A stretch of 64,000 bases of DNA from the IMG/VR virus record IMGVR_UViG_3300031963_000066, positions 1 through 64,000 of that record. The stretch is one strand, 5' to 3'. The stretch comes from a virus. Position 1 is the first letter of the stretch. Every line of letters starts with the position of its first letter. A model generated the notes under the pieces. It had not been told where the DNA came from, did no database searches, and was given only the letters and a program-made list of their open reading frames with translations. A program made the position numbers and the translations under genes. Shown here in pieces: positions 481 to 53,291 of the stretch.

Positions 481-569
481 TGGAGGTGAGCATCGGTCTC
501 GATCCGAATCCGCTTAACGCAAACGAACTGCTTAGCAGGCAGTCTTAGGTCCCACCTAATTTACTCACC
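481..569 (-). tRNA. tRNA-Ser (GCU)
   Basis: Acceptor GGTGAGT pairs with GCTCACC over 7 bp including one G-T. The D-arm is TTA-GGTGGGACC-TAA and the anticodon arm ACTGC-CTGCTAA-GCAGT gives GCT. It has a long variable arm, discriminator T and encoded CCA (481-483). The 5' 25 bases are also the last codons and stop of the GIY-YIG gene at 545-1225, so mature tRNA and endonuclease mRNA compete for the same RNA. Confidence 0.9.
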
Positions 570-1225
570 ATAACTCTACCTTTGCGCCAACCTTTTGGTA
601 TCGCATCGGTTTTTTTAATTTTTACATTTTCAATTTCATTTGTTATCCACATAGAACCGTATTGAGAATTTTTTTCGCCGTCATGTTTTCCTAAAGCTGA
701 TAATCTCATTTGTTCTTTAGTTTTTTGACTATGTTTTCTACCGGGCCATATTTTGGATAATCTATTCACTACATTTTTTTTATATTCTTCATCAGTCTTA
801 AATTTATTTTTAACACCTTCACTCATTTTGGTTCTAATTTTTTTATCATAATTCTCATCTTCTAACATTTTTTTATTTCTAGTTATAACCATCATAGACA
901 TGTGTGTTTTTGAGTGTGATGGATTATCTTTCCAATTGTTTAAATAATCAAATCCACCAAGTCCACCAATTTTAAGATTATAAGTATTTTCTGTTGTTAA
1001 AAAATCTTCATTAACTAATTCAGCTTCTTTTGCATACATTGGTTCAGGACTATCATATACAAACAATATATCTTTGGCAAAATTTTCAATACCATATTTC
1101 TCTTGTGCTCGCATTAAATATTTTCCTGAACCCATGTAATTGTCGTTCAAATTTTTGGTCTTATGTGTTCCAATATAAATTTTGCCATCAATTTGATTTG
1201 TTATCTTATAAACAGTAAAAAACAT
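545..1225 (-). CDS. GIY-YIG homing endonuclease
   Basis: A 226-residue free-standing endonuclease of the SegA/I-TevI type. The GIY-YIG core is at the N-terminus (VYKITN at about 5-10 and KIYIGTH at about 15-21), followed by a Lys-rich DNA-binding region. These enzymes nick or cut at a target and copy their own gene into it. An AAAGGAG ribosome site precedes the ATG, and a 6-bp hairpin lies at 1260-1276 further upstream. It sits inside the tRNA operon between Ser(UGA) and Ser(GCU). Its last codons and TAA stop lie within tRNA-Ser(GCU), so insertion probably used the tRNA end as a landing site. Coding is very AT-rich compared with the neighbours, consistent with horizontal entry. Confidence 0.9.
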   Translation of the reverse strand: MFFTVYKITNQIDGKIYIGTHKTKNLNDNYMGSGKYLMRAQEKYGIENFAKDILFVYDSPEPMYAKEAELVNEDFLTTENTYNLKIGGLGGFDYLNNWKDNPSHSKTHMSMMVITRNKKMLEDENYDKKIRTKMSEGVKNKFKTDEEYKKNVVNRLSKIWPGRKHSQKTKEQMRLSALGKHDGEKNSQYGSMWITNEIENVKIKKTDAIPKGWRKGRVMVSKLGGT

Positions 1226-1961: not shown

Positions 1962-2471
1962 TTATATTTTTTTCCATGCTATGGGTGTATGTTTTATTGG
2001 GTCTGTTGGATTTTTGAAATCGTTAAAGATTTCCCATAAATTTTCAGATATGGCAAACTTTGTTAGTAGTCCAGTCTCACGGCCATAGGCATCTATTTCC
2101 CATGGTTGAACCCAATAGTCCACTTTGTCTGAGTTGATTTTTTTACCACGCCACTTGGACAATTGGTCATTCGTTTCATCCTGAATATATTGTTTGACAT
2201 GAACCATTTCATGGGCCAATGTTTCCAGTATTCTTCTGGAACCAATATGCGGATGAATTTCTATTAGAAATTTTCTTGGTTGTTTTCTTGTGTTGTATTC
2301 CTCAACACTTGCAAAACCATATTCTTTTATGTTTTCGTCAAATTTAATTTCCACGGAACAGTTGTTCCGTATTCTGGAGTTTGGTACGAGCTCTTTGGAA
2401 TAGAATAATGCGGCTCTTTCCACGAAAGGCTTAAAGTCTTTGTCTGGACAATTGACTACCTTAACAAGCAT
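1962..2471 (-). CDS. SprT-like zinc metallopeptidase domain protein
   Basis: A 169-residue protein with a metallopeptidase motif HEMVH (His87, Glu88, His91) inside an amphipathic helix, as in SprT-like/minimal gluzincins. The third zinc ligand is not certain; Trp- and His-rich segments follow. A protease or DNA-protein crosslink role is possible but not shown. The ATG at 2471 is chosen because AAAGGAG precedes it by five bases. The start codon is buried in a 10-bp inverted repeat (2466-2504), suggesting translational control. The gene follows dCMP deaminase. Confidence 0.75.
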   Translation of the reverse strand: MLVKVVNCPDKDFKPFVERAALFYSKELVPNSRIRNNCSVEIKFDENIKEYGFASVEEYNTRKQPRKFLIEIHPHIGSRRILETLAHEMVHVKQYIQDETNDQLSKWRGKKINSDKVDYWVQPWEIDAYGRETGLLTKFAISENLWEIFNDFKNPTDPIKHTPIAWKKI

Positions 2472-2511
2472 GGGAACTCCTTTGGACGATAATGTCCCAT
2501 GCTTATTTAGA
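2466..2511 (-). promoter_or_regulatory. Start-codon hairpin with overlapping late box (SprT switch)
   Basis: Arms AAGCATGGGA (2495-2504) and TCCCATGCTT (2466-2475) are a perfect 10-bp inverted repeat. The right arm holds the ATG and the 19-base loop holds the AAAGGAG ribosome site. TCTAAATA (2504-2511) matches the T4-type late box at 7 of 8 positions. Its start would be near 2498, inside the left arm. Late RNA would thus lack most of the left arm. Confidence 0.65.
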
Positions 2512-2514
2512 GTT

Positions 2515-3042
2515 TCACATCTTTTCCACTTTTTCCACTTTCACTCCTGCTTTTTCCAAGAATTGTAAGCCATCTTGGATACGATAACTATTGCGATAAT
2601 AAACACTACTGATACCAGATTGGTAAACAAGCTTGGCACAGTCCAAACAAGGTGCATGAGTAACAAAGAGGTGAGCACCAAGGCCAGATTCATTTGATCT
2701 TGCCAGCTTAGCGATTGCATTAGTTTCCGCATGTAATACCTCTGGTTTGGTTGTTAGTTTATAACGAAGCCATGGAAGGTCTTCAGTTTTTGGTAACTGT
2801 TGTTCACTCCATGGCCACTGTTCTTCAATTTCTTGAGGGGACAACCAACCACCCGCCGTTTGGTCCATATATTCTTTATCTTCACAGTTGTTATCCCAAC
2901 CTGATGGCATACCATTGTAACCAATAGATATAATTCTATCATCTTTGACTACAATGGCACCAACATGAAGTCTACGAGCCGTTGACAATCCTGCGAATGT
3001 CTCAGCCACTTTCATATACGCATCAATAAATTTTTGTTTCAT
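2515..3042 (-). CDS. cd: dCMP deaminase
   Basis: A 175-residue deoxycytidylate deaminase that converts dCMP to dUMP for dTTP supply. The zinc motif is complete: HAE at 104-106 and PCLDC at 131-135 (Cys132, Cys135). The insert between strand 2 and HAE (residues about 50-100) is typical of the T4/ComEB dCMP deaminases. The ATG at 3042 lies 15 bases after the tRNA at 3057-3131, so mRNA and tRNA are probably co-transcribed and separated by tRNA 5'/3' processing. It belongs to the nucleotide metabolism set with the dNMP kinase at 7205-7858. Confidence 0.95.
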   Translation of the reverse strand: MKQKFIDAYMKVAETFAGLSTARRLHVGAIVVKDDRIISIGYNGMPSGWDNNCEDKEYMDQTAGGWLSPQEIEEQWPWSEQQLPKTEDLPWLRYKLTTKPEVLHAETNAIAKLARSNESGLGAHLFVTHAPCLDCAKLVYQSGISSVYYRNSYRIQDGLQFLEKAGVKVEKVEKM

Positions 3043-3336: not shown

Positions 3337-3365
3337 ATTATACAACAAAAAAAGGGGTCAGTCAA
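3337..3365 (-). promoter_or_regulatory. Consensus promoter overlapping a terminator
   Basis: TTGACT (3360-3365), a 17-base spacer and TATAAT (3337-3342) on the minus strand. The -35 hexamer is exactly the six-base loop of the terminator at 3347-3373, and its U-tract lies in the spacer. One 37-base segment therefore ends the hsp20 transcript and starts the next. Confidence 0.8.
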
Positions 3366-3963: not shown

Positions 3964-3992
3964 ATTATACTATTATTTATACTGTTTGTCAA
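3964..3992 (-). promoter_or_regulatory. Composite sigma70 / late promoter of hsp20
   Basis: TTGACA (3987-3992), a 17-base spacer and TATAAT (3964-3969), with a perfect late box TATAAATA (3974-3981) inside the spacer. The regA stop TGA is part of TTGACA. This suggests expression both early by host sigma and late by the phage gp55 sigma. Confidence 0.8.
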
Positions 3993-6527: not shown

Positions 6528-7205
6528 TTATTCTCCAAATGTTAGGTCTGATTCTTTAGCTTCGATAGCAATCCAATATTGCATATCTTCTTTTGTATTT
6601 CTAAAATAGGATAGTCCTTTTGAAGAAATTTGTACCTCATAGGTACCGGCAATCATCTTAAAGTTTTCAGTTAAGAATAATGCCTTAAACTTTTTGCCAT
6701 TACCATCTGCAATTTCTGTAGAGTCTGTATGTGCGGAGTTATCTTTTGAATCACAAGTTGTGATGTAAATCTTTGCACCATCAGATGTGATGGCAATATT
6801 TGGTGATTGTAGAATGCTTGCTGTTTTAAGTACAGAAGCCAATTCATCTTCTTTCAGTGTGAAAGATACATCCACAGTAGGAAGATTTAACTCTTTATCT
6901 GGTGGTGTTACAATCATACTCTTTGCAGTCTTGCGATAGTTGAGCTTCTTACGGCCAACTTTAAAGATAACATGTTCGTTATCAAAATCAATTTCACCGT
7001 CTTTGTACAAGGATTGAACCGACAAAAATTGGTTCAAATCATAGATACAAAAATCTTGTGGAAAGTCATCTTTAATTCCAGCTTTTGCCAAGACAGTCTT
7101 GGTTGCAGAAATGGTTGTCAGTTTCTTACCAGTCTTAAATTCAATGCCAGGATTAATGTTGGCAAAGTTTTTAAGAACCGTCAAGGTCTCATTGGATAAT
7201 TTCAT
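6528..7205 (-). CDS. 45: Sliding clamp gp45
   Basis: A 225-residue processivity clamp, the usual length for T4-like gp45. It starts MKLSNETLTVLKNFANINPG and shows the clamp pattern including the DFCIYDLNQFLS segment (about 52-63) and the domain-2 strand SPNIAITSDGAKIYITT. It forms a trimeric ring for the DNA polymerase and activates gp55-dependent late transcription. AAGGAG precedes the ATG, whose A is shared with the TAA stop of the dNMP kinase gene. Confidence 0.95.
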   Translation of the reverse strand: MKLSNETLTVLKNFANINPGIEFKTGKKLTTISATKTVLAKAGIKDDFPQDFCIYDLNQFLSVQSLYKDGEIDFDNEHVIFKVGRKKLNYRKTAKSMIVTPPDKELNLPTVDVSFTLKEDELASVLKTASILQSPNIAITSDGAKIYITTCDSKDNSAHTDSTEIADGNGKKFKALFLTENFKMIAGTYEVQISSKGLSYFRNTKEDMQYWIAIEAKESDLTFGE

Positions 7206-9066: not shown

Positions 9067-9095
9067 ATTATACTATTACTTAGTGTGTGTGTCAA
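9067..9095 (-). promoter_or_regulatory. Consensus sigma70 promoter of the HTH gene
   Basis: TTGACA (9090-9095), 17-base spacer, TATAAT (9067-9072). The stop codon of the upstream GIY-YIG gene (TGA, 9092-9094) lies inside TTGACA. The leader carries CTTGC-AGAAC-GCAAG at 9044-9059. Confidence 0.9.
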
Positions 9096-9784
9096 GTATA
9101 TTTGCGGTATACTTTTTTATCTGCCATTTTTTTGCTGGCAAATCCTTTCAATGAGTTTTGTCTTTTCCTTAAGGATTCTTCAGGAATAAAGTCCAACTCC
9201 TCATCAATAATTTTATTCAATAATTTCCATCCAATATCCAATTCTTTTTTGGCCTGGGTTTTACTTTCGTATTCTATACCAAAAATTATTACCGATTTTG
9301 ATTGACCATTATATTTACCAGAACGAACATATTGTGGAAATATAATTTTACCATCTATCATTTTATATAGAGTTCTCCAACAAACATTTAATTTTTCTCT
9401 TGCTTCACTTCTAGAAGCATAGGTAATACCATCAATAGTAACAGGTTTTCTTTTTTTAAGGTAAAAATTTTCAGTATGTTTATATCCAAACAATCCTTCT
9501 CCACCTAAAGTGTTATTATATCCTTTTTTTAGACTATTATATTCTTTTATAAAAAAAGGTTCCATCGTGTGTAAACAATGTTCTCTATCTAAAGATTGAT
9601 ATATTACATTCCATTCAAAACCATCAAGTCCATATTTTCTTAAAGCATTATAGAATTTATATTTTTTATTGAAATTTGACGGAGATTTGTGTTCCCACAT
9701 TCTTTGTGGCCAATTTGAATCAAATCCAATATATACTTTTCCGTTTATTTTATTTGTGGCTTTGTAGATAGAATAAATATTCAT
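9092..9784 (-). CDS. GIY-YIG homing endonuclease, second copy
   Basis: A 230-residue free-standing endonuclease. The GIY-YIG core is at the N-terminus (SIYKATNKINGKVYIGFDS, with Arg at about 27 and catalytic-type residues following). Two repeated DNA-binding segments with ITYASRSEAREKLN and IEYESKTQAKKELD (NUMOD-like helix-turn-helix units) lie around residues 115-195. It differs from the copy at 545-1225 beyond the nuclease core. It is inserted between the DruA-like gene and the HTH promoter. A late box at 9843-9850 suggests late expression, as for T4 homing genes. Confidence 0.9.
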   Translation of the reverse strand: MNIYSIYKATNKINGKVYIGFDSNWPQRMWEHKSPSNFNKKYKFYNALRKYGLDGFEWNVIYQSLDREHCLHTMEPFFIKEYNSLKKGYNNTLGGEGLFGYKHTENFYLKKRKPVTIDGITYASRSEAREKLNVCWRTLYKMIDGKIIFPQYVRSGKYNGQSKSVIIFGIEYESKTQAKKELDIGWKLLNKIIDEELDFIPEESLRKRQNSLKGFASKKMADKKVYRKYT

Positions 9785-15692: not shown

Positions 15693-16238
15693 TCACTCCT
15701 CAATAAATTTTTCAAGCCCTTTTGGTTTCTTTGCCGCATCTTTTTCGGCTTTCTTTGTTTTTCTGGCTACTTCATATGTCTCAATGAATTCGGCAATGTT
15801 ATCATAGAGTTCAAATTGTTTACTTGAACCATCTTCACTCTCTAACATCTCAAATTCATCCAGTATACCATACATCTCTGTGGCCTTGTACTTCACATAC
15901 AGTTGTTTCTTTTCTTTCTGTATTCGTCTTAGGAATGCAAAGTAGATTACTTGTGTGAAGTATGCAAATGGATTCTTAGACTTGTCTGGATCAAAGTTCT
16001 CAAAGTACATCAAACAGTTTTCAATACCATCGGAAATCATTTCATCACGGTAAGTGTAATTGATAAAGTTTGGTTTGTGTGATAGACCTTCGGCAATCTT
16101 CATAAAGCATTCACCAATGTAATTTGGAATGTTTGGTTTAGGTTTGCCAGCCTTTTCGGCTTCTACGCATCGTGTTTTGTAATCAACCAATGCCGTTAGG
16201 AAATCTTGATTGTTTATATAATGTTTCTGTTTACTCAT
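15693..16238 (-). CDS. 55: Late-transcription sigma factor gp55
   Basis: A 181-residue homologue of T4 gp55 (185 residues), the minimal sigma that recognises the TATAAATA late box on host RNA polymerase with gp45. Recognisable blocks are PNYIGECFMKIAEGLSHKPNF, RDEMISDGIENCLMYFENFDP and KNPFAYFTQVIYFAFLRRIQKEKKQ (shown in part as FAYFTQVIYFAFLRRI), the sigma region-2 like core. Its presence fits the many late boxes in this window. No strong ribosome site is visible before the ATG. It heads the 55-47-46 operon. Confidence 0.95.
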   Translation of the reverse strand: MSKQKHYINNQDFLTALVDYKTRCVEAEKAGKPKPNIPNYIGECFMKIAEGLSHKPNFINYTYRDEMISDGIENCLMYFENFDPDKSKNPFAYFTQVIYFAFLRRIQKEKKQLYVKYKATEMYGILDEFEMLESEDGSSKQFELYDNIAEFIETYEVARKTKKAEKDAAKKPKGLEKFIEE

Positions 16239-18817: not shown

Positions 18818-19318
18818 GTATTTGTATGATTGATATCTAAATGTTGCCGATGCGGTTATTATTGTATCTGCTGATTGTGTAGTATCAAATCTAAGTGCGC
18901 TAATAGTTAAAGGAAACACATTTGTGAATTGTATTCTTAAAATAGGATTGTTTAATCCACTCAGTATACTTAATGTTGCATCGGAAAAATTTTTATTGTC
19001 TTGTAGTTCTTTACTACCATCACGCTTTTCAAAACCATCAGGATCAGCAATGGAAGTGAACCAATCGTATATGTTTTTCCATGACTGTAGTTCTTCATCT
19101 ATTATAAATTCTATGTCCAATGGTTCATAGGTCAGTTTGGTGCCTGGTGAAAACATGTCCAAAAACGGAGTAGGTTTCATAACTTCACCCAAAGAAACAC
19201 CTGGTAGATTAACCTGTTGGCAAAAATATTGTGTGGCCCTAATTCTATCGAATGTCAATAAGAATTTGGTGGGTTGAAGTAAATCGGTATTTTCTGGTGT
19301 TCTGGTTATTGCAGACAT
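18806..19318 (-). CDS. Tail-tube-fold virion protein (possible gp3/gp54 role)
   Basis: A 170-residue protein with the tube-like pattern of the gp19 family: QPTKFLLTFDRI (15-26), QQVNLPGVSLG (about 34-44), YEPLDIEFIIDEELQSWKNIYDWF (about 65-88, given in part), and a C-terminal strand set. In related phages the slot between 23 and uvsY is often called gp3, the tail completion protein. A baseplate tube initiator is another option. Ribosome site AGAGGAG lies in a hairpin beside a late box (19324-19346). Confidence 0.65.
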   Translation of the reverse strand: MSAITRTPENTDLLQPTKFLLTFDRIRATQYFCQQVNLPGVSLGEVMKPTPFLDMFSPGTKLTYEPLDIEFIIDEELQSWKNIYDWFTSIADPDGFEKRDGSKELQDNKNFSDATLSILSGLNNPILRIQFTNVFPLTISALRFDTTQSADTIITASATFRYQSYKYLTV

Positions 19319-19323
19319 ATTAT

Positions 19324-19346
19324 CTCCTCTATGTACTATTTAGGAG
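19324..19346 (-). promoter_or_regulatory. Late box plus Shine-Dalgarno hairpin (tube-like gene)
   Basis: CTCCT (19342-19346) can pair with AGGAG (19324-19328), which is the ribosome site of the gene starting at 19318. The late box CCTAAATA (19337-19344) overlaps the left arm, so transcripts starting near 19331 would lack it and have a free ribosome site. Confidence 0.55.
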
Positions 19347-22758: not shown

Positions 22759-23310
22759 TTATGGTTTCATGCCGTAACTACCATAATTAAAGGCAGCAGG
22801 ATCGGTAAACTGTCCACGCTCATAGTGTGCGTTGTCTTTACGCAATTCCATAATGATTGTATAACCTGAGTTTGCTACTTGACCTCTTGTGCAAATTGCA
22901 ATATCTCCGTTGTTCCATGTTGTGGCTGTATTAGATACAGTTGGATTTTTAATAGTAATCCAGTTACCGGCACCATCATATTCACCACTACCTTGCATGA
23001 ATATAATTGGTACACCAGAATTAGCTAAATCACTTCTACTGTTTGCCCAATATAATTGTACATCACTGCTGCCACTATCTGAATCATACCATATACGGTG
23101 TATTGTCAAACCATAATAGTACAATGGTCCTGTGTTTGCAGTTGATGACAATAGATTTGCTCTTGAGTAATCTAAAGCACCATATAAAGTGTTTGCTTGG
23201 ATTCTGGCCACATTGTTTTCTTGACCTGTACCATCAAATTCACCAGTAAGTTTGATGACTGCATGTTGCGTATCATCTTTTAATACTTGATATGAAAATT
23301 TGTTTGCCAT
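22759..23310 (-). CDS. Virion-associated protein of unknown function
   Basis: A 183-residue beta-rich protein starting MANKFSYQVLKDDTQHAVIKLTGEFDGTG. It has strands, no catalytic motif, and many aromatic and Asp/Gly turns. A gene of this type lies between 21 and 20 in related marine phages, where it is usually listed as structural. Its own perfect late box (23338-23345) supports a virion role, perhaps capsid decoration. Confidence 0.75.
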   Translation of the reverse strand: MANKFSYQVLKDDTQHAVIKLTGEFDGTGQENNVARIQANTLYGALDYSRANLLSSTANTGPLYYYGLTIHRIWYDSDSGSSDVQLYWANSRSDLANSGVPIIFMQGSGEYDGAGNWITIKNPTVSNTATTWNNGDIAICTRGQVANSGYTIIMELRKDNAHYERGQFTDPAAFNYGSYGMKP

Positions 23311-23337
23311 TTGTAATCCCTGTTATTGTTTGAATAA

Positions 23338-23345
23338 TATTTATA
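23338..23345 (-). promoter_or_regulatory. Late promoter
   Basis: Perfect TATAAATA box, 28 bases before the ATG of the virion gene starting at 23310. Confidence 0.8.
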
Positions 23346-33446: not shown

Positions 33447-33950
33447 TTATCCTAACTTTTCACAAAAATAATTTTTGTGGTGTTTTCTTAAACCACTAGC
33501 CACAATTGACATTTTTGAACTATCCAAGTTATTTTCCTTACAATATTGTTGTAAATTTTTTATTTTTATTTTTGTTCCGTCTGGTTTGGTTATTAACCAA
33601 TTTCTACTATTACTCTCGGATATTTTATTTTTCCATTCACAAGGACGGCCTTTTAATGTCTCACTCATTTTTAATTTATATTCATCAGACCATTTACGAC
33701 CTAAATTTGCTTTGTGACCTACTGGTGGTCTAGATTTTTTACCAGACATTACAAATAGTTCGTGTAACAATTCTTCTTTACCAATAATGCCAGCTAAACC
33801 TTTCCAAGCTAATTCATCTTGTTTATGTCCATATTTTTCCCACAAAACACGATGAGCTTCCGCATGTTCTTCTACGGTAAGTTCAATTAAATTGGACGGA
33901 TCATTTGTTCCACCCATATGTTTTGGAATAATATGGTGTTGGTGTTTCAT
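33447..33950 (-). CDS. HNH homing endonuclease
   Basis: A 167-residue free-standing HNH enzyme. The motif reads HHIIPKHMGGTNDPSNLIELTVEEHAEAH in the first 35 residues (given in part: HHIIPKHMGG, N-L-I-L-T, EEHAEAH). A NUMOD-like segment (WSDEYKLKMSETLKGRP) and a C-terminal helix-turn-helix-like region follow. It fits exactly between neck genes 13 and 14: its ATG is one base after the gene 13 stop, and its end supplies the gene 14 ribosome site. Very AT-rich, consistent with transfer. Confidence 0.9.
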   Translation of the reverse strand: MKHQHHIIPKHMGGTNDPSNLIELTVEEHAEAHRVLWEKYGHKQDELAWKGLAGIIGKEELLHELFVMSGKKSRPPVGHKANLGRKWSDEYKLKMSETLKGRPCEWKNKISESNSRNWLITKPDGTKIKIKNLQQYCKENNLDSSKMSIVASGLRKHHKNYFCEKLG

Positions 33951-33951
33951 A

Positions 33952-34728
33952 TTAGTTCATAAACATTTCTAGTGGTGCACCGTACTTGTCACCAATTTCT
34001 GCATGAAGGGCATCAATTTCTGTTTTTGCTTCCTCATAAATCTTATCACCATTCAACATGACACCACCTGGTAATTGTATACCACTAAACTTTTTAAGGT
34101 TGTTGCCCCATGAACGCTTGATAAGTGCTGTTGCATACTCTTTTAACCAACGGTCGTTCCAGACATAATTGTAATATTCTGGATTGATTGTTGCATAAGA
34201 TTCCATGACAACAACAGTACCGACTGGTGCTTGTGAAGAACCCCAAGCCCAATCAATGAAAAGTTTTTTCATGTGTCTTTGATAACGGATTGGTATTTCA
34301 CCAGTAAACATTAACTCCAATGAACGCAAATGTTGTTGTGTTAATGTATAGTTGATGTAAGATGCGGAAGTGAAATCGTACAATTCATTCAAACGCAATT
34401 GATATCTCAAGTCAAACATGTTGATTGATGCTGACGAATCTTGAATAGGGAAAATTCTAGTTATACCAACTATGTCAACAGAATTATTTGAATCGTCTGT
34501 AACATTAGTTAGATTTATATATTTGTTTTGAATGTCTGTCGCATCAAGTTTTTTGATGTAATATATTTTTTGTAGGCCATCAAAGTGGTAGTCTTGCCAA
34601 TATTGAAGTGCATCATCAATACGGTCTTCTACCTGATCGTCATCAACGTTGATTTCGATTACTGGAAACCCTAGTCTACGCAGGCAATAATCTTTGAATG
34701 CCGTTCTTGTTGTTATTGGTTGTGCCAT
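33952..34728 (-). CDS. 13: Neck protein gp13
   Basis: A 258-residue neck protein (T4: 309). Typical blocks are AFKDYCLRRLGFPVIEINVDDDQVEDRIDDALQYW (about 10-44, shown in part as DYCLRRLGFPVIEINV) and YYNYVWNDRWLKEYATALIKRSWG (in part). It binds the portal and gp14 after packaging. The ribosome site GGGGG is held in a small hairpin beside a late box (34734-34755). Confidence 0.95.
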   Translation of the reverse strand: MAQPITTRTAFKDYCLRRLGFPVIEINVDDDQVEDRIDDALQYWQDYHFDGLQKIYYIKKLDATDIQNKYINLTNVTDDSNNSVDIVGITRIFPIQDSSASINMFDLRYQLRLNELYDFTSASYINYTLTQQHLRSLELMFTGEIPIRYQRHMKKLFIDWAWGSSQAPVGTVVVMESYATINPEYYNYVWNDRWLKEYATALIKRSWGNNLKKFSGIQLPGGVMLNGDKIYEEAKTEIDALHAEIGDKYGAPLEMFMN

Positions 34729-34733
34729 TATAT

Positions 34734-34755
34734 CCCCCTATAAGGGGTATTTATG
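34734..34755 (-). promoter_or_regulatory. Late box plus Shine-Dalgarno hairpin (gene 13)
   Basis: CCCC (34744-34747), loop TTATA, GGGG (34735-34738). The right arm plus one G is the gene 13 ribosome site, five bases from the ATG. The late box CATAAATA (34748-34755) directly abuts the left arm, so late RNA would start near 34742, in the loop. Confidence 0.65.
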
Positions 34756-37958: not shown

Positions 37959-38677
37959 GTTCGTCTATAATATAATGTTACTTTTAATCCTTTTGCACCA
38001 GTACCAGCAACATCAATATCCATAGTTATTTCATCATCATCTGAAAAAGTAGTTGTAGATAACACCGCCGGTGTAGCGGCAGTAACACTTGTTTTTTCAT
38101 TTGCATCTATTGTTAATCTTGTGCCAAAAATAGTAGTACCGTTTTTATTAATATCAATTTCAGGAATTCCAGATGTACTTGCAGTGGCCAATGATGCTCT
38201 AGGTATCTGATACAGTGTCATTGCATGTGGTGCTCTAAATGTTACTTTAGCTGTACCTGTAGTTATTGATGTTGTTTCATCACTAAGAGCCACAGTCAAG
38301 TAAACGTTTGCAGAAGTATTGGCTGCAGCAAAAGCACCATTGGCATACAAACTCGCAGAGTTTGCAGTATCATAAGCATTGTTTGCTTTTGTTCTTACCC
38401 ACGCATCTGATGCATTGTTGGCTGCATTATATGCTGCATTGGCTTGAATGAATGATCCATTTGCAAATATTGATGCCGAGTTTGCAGTAATAAATCCTGC
38501 ATTGGCCGTACCTCTAGCCCACGAATCTGCACCCGAACCACCGTCATTAGTATTTGCTTGTGCAAAAGCAGCATTAGCCTGTGCAAACGCAAGATTTGCT
38601 CGGTCAAATGCAGAGGGCACCAAAGAAGAAAAATCTTTAGTTGAATCTAATCTTGATGGAGGTACTTGTGTTGACAT
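37955..38677 (-). CDS. Heptad-repeat plus beta-domain virion protein
   Basis: A 240-residue protein. Residues about 20-125 are Ala/Asn heptads (FAQANAA, SIFANGS, SLYANGA), interrupted by a DAWVRTKAN unit. Residues 128-240 form a beta domain (VYLTVALSDETTSITTGTAKVTFRAPHAMTLYQIPRA in part), ending DIDVAGTGAKGLKVTLYYRR. This C-terminal domain type is frequent in phage tail proteins. A fibre or connector role is likely. Confidence 0.7.
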   Translation of the reverse strand: MSTQVPPSRLDSTKDFSSLVPSAFDRANLAFAQANAAFAQANTNDGGSGADSWARGTANAGFITANSASIFANGSFIQANAAYNAANNASDAWVRTKANNAYDTANSASLYANGAFAAANTSANVYLTVALSDETTSITTGTAKVTFRAPHAMTLYQIPRASLATASTSGIPEIDINKNGTTIFGTRLTIDANEKTSVTAATPAVLSTTTFSDDDEITMDIDVAGTGAKGLKVTLYYRRT

Positions 38678-38697
38678 TAATTATAACCTTTTTACAT

Positions 38698-38705
38698 TAT
38701 TTATT
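38698..38705 (-). promoter_or_regulatory. Late promoter
   Basis: AATAAATA overlapping the stop of the giant LamG gene, about 20 bases before the ATG at 38677. Confidence 0.7.
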
Positions 38706-52921: not shown

Positions 52922-53263
52922 TTAAAATACTGTAACTTGGGGTAAGACGTTCACAACTCCCTCTAAAACCCGTATGACTGTGTTTGAAGAATCTTTGATA
53001 ATCACATCATACACATAACGGCCAGCAGAAATATTTGCCGTGTTTGCATAAGGTAAAGACAATATTATAATGCCTTCTGTTGGATCATTAACTGTTATTA
53101 CAAAATTAGCGGTTGTGCTACTAGAATAATATGATTTTTTCATGGCAGCTTTTACTTGGCTACCAGTTAGAGTAAAAGGTGAACCATCAGCTTGATCCAA
53201 TGTGATGGATGTACTAAAGTTTGAACCTTGTTCTAGAAATAATTCTTGGTAACCAGCTGGCAT
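52922..53263 (-). CDS. Small virion protein with Ig-like fold
   Basis: A 113-residue beta protein starting MPAGYQELFLEQGSNFSTSITLDQADGSPF. The order 'L.QG..F...I.L....G.P..LTG..V.A.M', then LSLPYANTANISAGRYVYDVII, is familiar from phage baseplate-region beta proteins. The ribosome site is GGGG, held in a small hairpin beside a perfect late box (53271-53291). Confidence 0.7.
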   Translation of the reverse strand: MPAGYQELFLEQGSNFSTSITLDQADGSPFTLTGSQVKAAMKKSYYSSSTTANFVITVNDPTEGIIILSLPYANTANISAGRYVYDVIIKDSSNTVIRVLEGVVNVLPQVTVF

Positions 53264-53270
53264 TGTTTAA

Positions 53271-53291
53271 CCCCTTTTGGAGGTATTTATA
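53271..53291 (-). promoter_or_regulatory. Late box plus Shine-Dalgarno hairpin
   Basis: A perfect TATAAATA (53284-53291) is followed by CCTC (53280-53283), which can pair with GGGG (53271-53274), the ribosome site of the gene starting at 53263. The late start (near 53278) is in the loop, so late RNA would lack the left arm. Apart from this, 53292-53387 holds only AT-rich sequence with an imperfect AAATTCGAATTT-type palindrome. Confidence 0.55.

What the first reader, a model, noticed from the sequence alone, without database searches (positions are those of the whole stretch)
2466..2511. SprT-like gene start codon locked in a 10-bp hairpin with a late box at its base
The ATG lies in the right arm of a perfect 10-bp inverted repeat and the ribosome site is in the loop. 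A late-type box (TCTAAATA) ends on the first base of the left arm. RNA started there would lack most of that arm, while read-through RNA from cd would fold shut. This is the T4 e/soc type early-silent, late-active logic, here on a putative metallopeptidase.
Basis: partly seen in the sequence, partly recalled or inferred. Interest (0 to 1): 0.7.

Follow-up and report, generated by a model that had tools for sequence, protein, structure and literature searches.

The report
Late-only translation switch on phage metallopeptidase
In an uncultivated T4-like phage, a late promoter sits on the edge of an RNA hairpin that hides the start codon of a putative metallopeptidase gene, so early read-through RNA should be silent and late RNA translatable; this is the known T4 lysozyme-type trick on a new gene, and close relatives carry a version without the hairpin.

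Summary
On the minus strand, late box TCTAAATA (2511-2504) ends on the first base of a perfect 10-bp inverted repeat (2504-2495 / 2475-2466). The right arm holds the ATG (2471-2469) and the loop holds the SD (2483-2477). The phage is T4-like and encodes gp45 and gp55; the box type marks its late genes. A sigma70-type promoter upstream of the adjacent dCMP deaminase gene (cd) can supply early read-through RNA, with no convincing terminator between.

Predicted opening cost of the start region is 17.9 kcal/mol in read-through RNA and 6.4 in late RNA. The same index run on 27 T4 late-box genes ranks I-TevI, 49, I-TevII and e first (10.8-13.6), although it misses soc (0.6); this gene scores 11.5.

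However, the 10-bp pairing is not conserved. Relatives 97% identical in protein carry two mismatches and no predicted switch; the window's allele looks derived. The late box is conserved. Across 41 other leaders native read-through segments close their own start region more than swapped ones (0 of 10,000 permutations), with differing pairing registers. A second, better-conserved case is the head-tail adaptor gene (34748-34728).

Verdict: new member of a known kind. No transcript data.

The parts
2504..2511 (-). T4-type late promoter box TCTAAATA (-13 to -6)
   Evidence: sequence; N[AC]TAAATA marks late genes of this phage; a late box lies upstream of the gene in nearly all homologues examined; gp55 homologue encoded
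2498..2498 (-). predicted late transcription start (+1, G)
   Evidence: inference from the T4 spacing -13 to -6 (PMC1524935); not mapped
2495..2504 (-). left arm of the 10-bp hairpin; 2504-2499 present only in read-through RNA
2476..2494 (-). hairpin loop containing the ribosome site
2477..2483 (-). Shine-Dalgarno AAAGGAG
   Evidence: sequence
2466..2475 (-). right arm of the hairpin, containing the ATG (2471-2469) and codon 2
2484..2497 (-). small competing stem-loop GGAC-AUUAUC-GUCC at the 5' end of the predicted late RNA; similar stems with different bases in relatives (GGGU/GCCC, GGAA/UUCC)
   Evidence: fold of late RNA; leaders
1962..2471 (-). regulated gene: 169-aa zincin-like metallopeptidase with invariant HEMVH (H87, E88, H91)
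   Evidence: 47-member alignment; AlphaFold pLDDT 90; Foldseek top hits are mostly metallopeptidases, none significant; Pfam M91 and SprT-like below cut-off
2515..3042 (-). dCMP deaminase gene (cd); presumed read-through into the metallopeptidase gene
   Evidence: PF00383 E 1.1e-19; directly upstream in 67 of 87 distinct homologue leaders
3337..3365 (-). putative early sigma70-type promoter TTGACT-17-TATAAT upstream of a small ORF, tRNA-Met and cd
   Evidence: 11 of 12 match; most relatives have a strong match upstream of cd; not mapped
15693..16103 (-). gp55-type late sigma factor
   Evidence: phrog_234 E 5.4e-44
6528..7205 (-). gp45-type sliding clamp
   Evidence: PF09116 E 2.2e-10

Best explanation
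A T4 e-type expression switch on a putative metallopeptidase gene. Early RNA read through from cd contains the whole left arm and folds so that the AUG is base-paired and the SD is confined to the loop, so translation is low. Late in infection the gp55/gp45 polymerase starts at the box, about G2498, inside the left arm; the late RNA lacks six of ten left-arm bases, cannot form the hairpin, and is translated. Shown in the sequence: box, hairpin, gene order, sigma and clamp genes. Computed: the energy difference. Inferred: late start site, early read-through, repression and its relief. The allele is recent: the sister allele has two mismatches in the arms and no predicted switch.
For: Late machinery and motif: gp45, gp55, N[AC]TAAATA upstream of capsid, sheath, scaffold and other late genes; CTAAATA is a published variant (Aeh1). 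A late box lies upstream of the gene in 84 of 87 distinct homologue leaders under the filter used. Energy: opening 17.9 read-through against 6.4 late, difference 11.5, and 12.0 and 11.7 in longer contexts. Calibration: the same index on 27 T4 late-box genes puts I-TevI, 49, I-TevII and e first with 13.6, 13.1, 13.0 and 10.8, next gene 6.9. Family: native read-through segments close their own start region more than segments swapped from other leaders (window allele removed: 1.58 against 0.47 +/- 0.24, 0 of 10,000) or shuffled own flanks (0 of 20,000). Context: strong early-type promoter upstream of cd and no convincing terminator between cd and the ATG.
Against: No transcript or protein data. 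The 10-bp pairing is broken twice in the closest relatives (97% aa), whose index is about 0. Many homologues show no switch. The index misses T4 soc (0.6), so it is not complete. The predicted late RNA is still moderately structured (6.4 against 1.6-4.1 for T4 e, 49 and I-TevI). Permutation tests treat related leaders as independent. The cd stop codon is about 10 nt before the left arm, so terminating ribosomes could disturb the hairpin.
Confidence: 0.66

Rival explanations
1. The late promoter is real but the hairpin is incidental: a chance fold of one allele, with no effect on translation timing.
For: Pairing absent in the closest relatives, index about 0; 8 of 1000 leader shuffles fold as tightly and about 80 genes were open to choice.
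Against: Index equals the T4 genes known to be so regulated; family-wide excess without the window allele; of the three changes that separate the alleles within hairpin and loop, two create arm pairs and the third weakens the competing small stem.
Confidence: 0.22
2. The hairpin serves the upstream gene: a transcription terminator or 3'-end stabiliser for cd mRNA.
For: It lies just after the cd stop codon.
Against: No T run follows the right arm and the scan lists no minus-strand terminator there; the right arm contains the ATG; the predicted late start lies within the left arm.
Confidence: 0.05
3. Translational coupling: ribosomes finishing cd open the hairpin, so the gene follows cd translation rather than infection time.
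For: cd stop is about 10 nt before the left arm and 43 nt before the ATG; cd is directly upstream in 67 of 87 distinct leaders.
Against: A late promoter between the genes is conserved; a terminating ribosome would reach only the start of the left arm (inference); T4 e has a similar layout after nudE (37 nt).
Confidence: 0.06

Closest known systems
T4 gene e (lysozyme) late-promoter/hairpin control
   Same: Upstream gene about 40 nt away, late promoter at the left arm, read-through RNA closed and late RNA open; energy index 10.8 against 11.5 here.
   Different: Gene is a putative metallopeptidase; start codon paired with SD in the loop; box is TCTAAATA; untested in vivo; not conserved in the nearest relatives.
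T4 gene 49 and intron-encoded I-TevI / I-TevII
   Same: Late box next to an RNA structure that hides the translation start only in longer transcripts.
   Different: Those are nuclease genes, two of them inside introns; here a freestanding gene after cd.
Aeh1 mobE RNA hairpin and Aeh1 CTAAATA late promoters
   Same: Hairpin sequesters a ribosome site; the C at -12 of the box is the Aeh1 type.
   Different: mobE is a homing endonuclease gene; no sequence relation tested.

Membership tests
T4 e-type late-promoter/hairpin switch | gp55-type late promoter placed so that transcription starts inside or beyond the left arm | tested here: met
   Box ends on the first arm base; predicted +1 G2498 removes 6 of 10 arm bases; start site itself not mapped
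T4 e-type late-promoter/hairpin switch | longer transcripts sequester SD and/or AUG in a helix | tested here: met
   In silico: AUG paired, opening 17.9 kcal/mol, z -4.4
T4 e-type late-promoter/hairpin switch | late transcripts lose the inhibitory structure | tested here: met
   In silico: 6.4 kcal/mol, 10-bp helix absent; a weaker small stem remains
T4 e-type late-promoter/hairpin switch | gene lies on early read-through transcripts | tested here: inconclusive
   Promoter-like TTGACT-17-TATAAT at 3365-3337 and no convincing terminator before the ATG; no RNA data
T4 e-type late-promoter/hairpin switch | pairing maintained in close relatives (supporting, not strictly defining) | tested here: not met
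   Two mismatches in the sister allele, L001/L091 group
T4 e-type late-promoter/hairpin switch | reduced early translation in vivo | not testable with these tools
   needs reporter or proteome data
SprT-like (PF10263) metallopeptidase | score above the family cut-off | tested here: not met
   14.6 bits against 25.6; 37 of 47 homologues hit weakly
zincin metallopeptidase (broad fold class) | HExxH motif in a helix and metallopeptidase-like fold | tested here: inconclusive
   H87, E88, H91 invariant in 47; most top Foldseek hits are metallopeptidases but none with E <= 0.001

The most novel reading that the evidence does not exclude
In this group of T4-like phages, the few bases between the late box and +1 widely act as a read-through silencer: they are absent from the gene's own late RNA but pair with the SD or AUG in read-through RNA. 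The logic persists while the base pairs change register, and alleles with and without the silencer coexist.
Probability: 0.35. Interest if true: 0.62.

Novelty: new member of a known kind. Interest (0 to 1): 0.46.

Why it matters
It places the T4 lysozyme-type switch on a gene class not named among the T4 examples in the reviews read here, in an uncultivated phage group. It also gives a natural allele pair (about 97% identical genes, leader with and without pairing) that could test how such switches arise. The read-through/late energy index, which recovered four known T4 cases from 27 late-box genes, offers a simple way to find more; the head-tail adaptor gene is the next candidate.

Tried and rejected
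Counting TMTAAATA in the window: not above chance, so position and homologues were used instead. Nucleotide search of cultured phages: only a tRNA match. Homologues in cultured phages (Cr30, phiM12, P-SSM2, S-BM3, Melnitz, DLP6, S-SM2) are not annotated next to cd, so they do not test the leader. Rfam: only tRNAs reach the gathering score. Solved-structure sequence search: none. MAFFT alignment of adaptor leaders mixes pairing registers and was not used for pair counts. Same permutation test on Melnitz, Mosig and S-SKS1: no genome-wide excess, so the effect is not general to T4-like phages. Other late genes of this record as a set: 586 of 10,000, not significant. Contrast between leaders with and without their own early promoter: index difference p = 0.13, only suggestive. 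A count of cd differences was spoiled by indels and ignored.

Full report
What is there. The window is 64,000 bases of an 84,667-base virus record of a T4-like phage: gp45, gp44, gp62, RegA, Hsp20 and dCMP deaminase, major head protein, portal, protease and sheath, gp46/gp47-like SbcCD, UvsY, tail tube and a gp55-type late sigma factor. Nearly all called genes lie on the minus strand. Closest cultured capsid proteins are those of Methylophilales phage Melnitz and Pelagibacter phage Mosig, about 65%.

Is the box a late promoter? Very likely. N[AC]TAAATA occurs 25 times on the gene-bearing strand and 5 times on the other; 18 of the 25 lie 5-85 nt upstream of a gene start, among them those of the major head protein, sheath and scaffold (my count). 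C at -12 is documented for Aeh1 (PMC1524935). Upstream of this gene a late box is present in 84 of 87 distinct homologue leaders under the filter (51 after dereplication).

Does read-through RNA exist? A sigma70-type match of 11/12 lies at 3365-3337, followed by a small ORF, tRNA-Met, cd and this gene, and the scan shows no convincing minus-strand terminator between cd and the ATG. Strong promoter matches upstream recur in relatives (50 of 67 leaders with some match). None is mapped.

Does the structure switch? I compared the free energy needed to open the start region (-15 to +3) in RNA beginning 12 nt before the box and in RNA beginning at the predicted late start. Window: 17.9 and 6.4 kcal/mol; difference 11.5, and 12.0 and 11.7 with longer contexts. 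The same script on T4, choosing late boxes and starts automatically, gave 27 genes, of which the four highest are I-TevI, 49, I-TevII and e. The review literature lists e, soc, 49 and I-TevI as having such structures (PMC3014915) and describes similar arrangements for I-TevII (PMC2988022). soc scores 0.6 and is missed. The next T4 gene scores 6.9. In T4 as a whole native exceeds swapped segments (49 of 10,000 permutations reach it), which those four genes probably drive.

Is the pairing conserved? No. A pattern search of viral contigs found 14 loci with this leader: three share the window's allele (L085, L089, L096) and eleven carry C instead of A at 2500, T instead of C at 2488 and G instead of T at 2467. 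That gives mismatches at 2500/2470 and 2503/2467. The alternative allele has an index near 0. It is found in genes differing from the window's by 9 to 95 of 507 bases, while the window allele is confined to its closest kin; the protein tree places L001 next to the window with L090 outside, although the outer fork is weakly supported. So the window allele is probably derived. Two of the three changes make arm pairs, and the third weakens the small competing stem. This is suggestive of selection for the hairpin, but the hairpin was chosen because it is perfect, so no probability is attached. The leader pattern search fixes most leader bases, so identity of leaders among those 14 loci is biased; L001-L003, found by protein search, have the same leader while their genes differ from the window's by up to 95 of 507 bases.

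Is the logic conserved? Partly. Among 41 dereplicated leaders with the box 14-45 nt upstream, window allele removed, the read-through-only segment closes its own start region by 1.58 kcal/mol on average against 0.47 +/- 0.24 for segments exchanged between leaders (0 of 10,000), and 8 of 10,000 when the L004/L006/L011 clade is removed too. Shuffling own flanks gives the same answer (0 of 20,000). L004, L006 and L011 form CUAAGGG/CCCUUAG-type stems that reach into the SD, with the left strand partly before the predicted +1; L005 has the stem but no predicted relief. Many leaders show nothing. Relatedness among leaders was reduced by dereplication but not modelled.

A second case. The head-tail adaptor gene (33952-34728, phrog_211) has CATAAATA directly followed by CCCCTTATAGGGGG and then the ATG. 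In relatives the left arm changes along with the SD (CCTC/GAGG, CCTT/AAGG, CCCCC/GGGGG). Over 46 dereplicated leaders native is 4.13 and permuted 2.19 +/- 0.23 (0 of 20,000). This is stronger comparative support for the mechanism in this phage group than the finding itself.

Limits on generality. Melnitz, Mosig and S-SKS1 show no genome-wide excess, and the other late genes of this record as a set are not significant (586 of 10,000). The switch is therefore a feature of particular genes.

The gene product. 169 aa, invariant HEMVH in 47 homologues, AlphaFold pLDDT 90; Foldseek returns mainly zinc metallopeptidases, none with E <= 0.001. Pfam M91 and SprT-like hits are below cut-off. 'Putative metallopeptidase' is justified; 'SprT' is not shown. 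Its role, and why it should be kept off early, are unknown.

Judgement. Late promoter about 0.9; hairpin forming in read-through RNA about 0.85; biological early-silent, late-active switch about 0.66. It is a new member of a known kind, with the unusual point that neighbouring alleles differ in having it.

Noticed in passing
window 34728-34748 (-); relatives L241-L320: Head-tail adaptor gene: bases directly after the late box pair with the SD; pairing kept with changed bases in many relatives; index 9.2.
   Followed up: partly
window 53263-53284, 38677-38698, 23310-23338, 19318-19337 (-): Other late genes with a read-through/late opening difference of 4-5 kcal/mol; as a set not significant.
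   Followed up: partly
L040, L043, L050, L058 and others, just upstream of the homologous gene: Distant relatives share a leader element TTGGGTCAAYTTAYTAAGGAG; it occurs once in each of 51 fetched loci and some have a complementary stretch before the ATG. Function unknown.
   Followed up: no
L024, L036, L051, L054, L058, about 105-126 nt upstream of the gene: Perfect TTGACA-17-TATAAT directly upstream of the homologous gene; such leaders that were tested show no late-relieved hairpin.
   Followed up: partly
window 3964-3992 (-): Perfect sigma70-type promoter with a TATAAATA late box inside it, upstream of the Hsp20 gene.
   Followed up: no
window 545-1225, 9092-9784, 33447-33845 (-): Three homing-endonuclease-like genes; that at 9092-9784 has a late box 59 nt upstream.
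   Followed up: no
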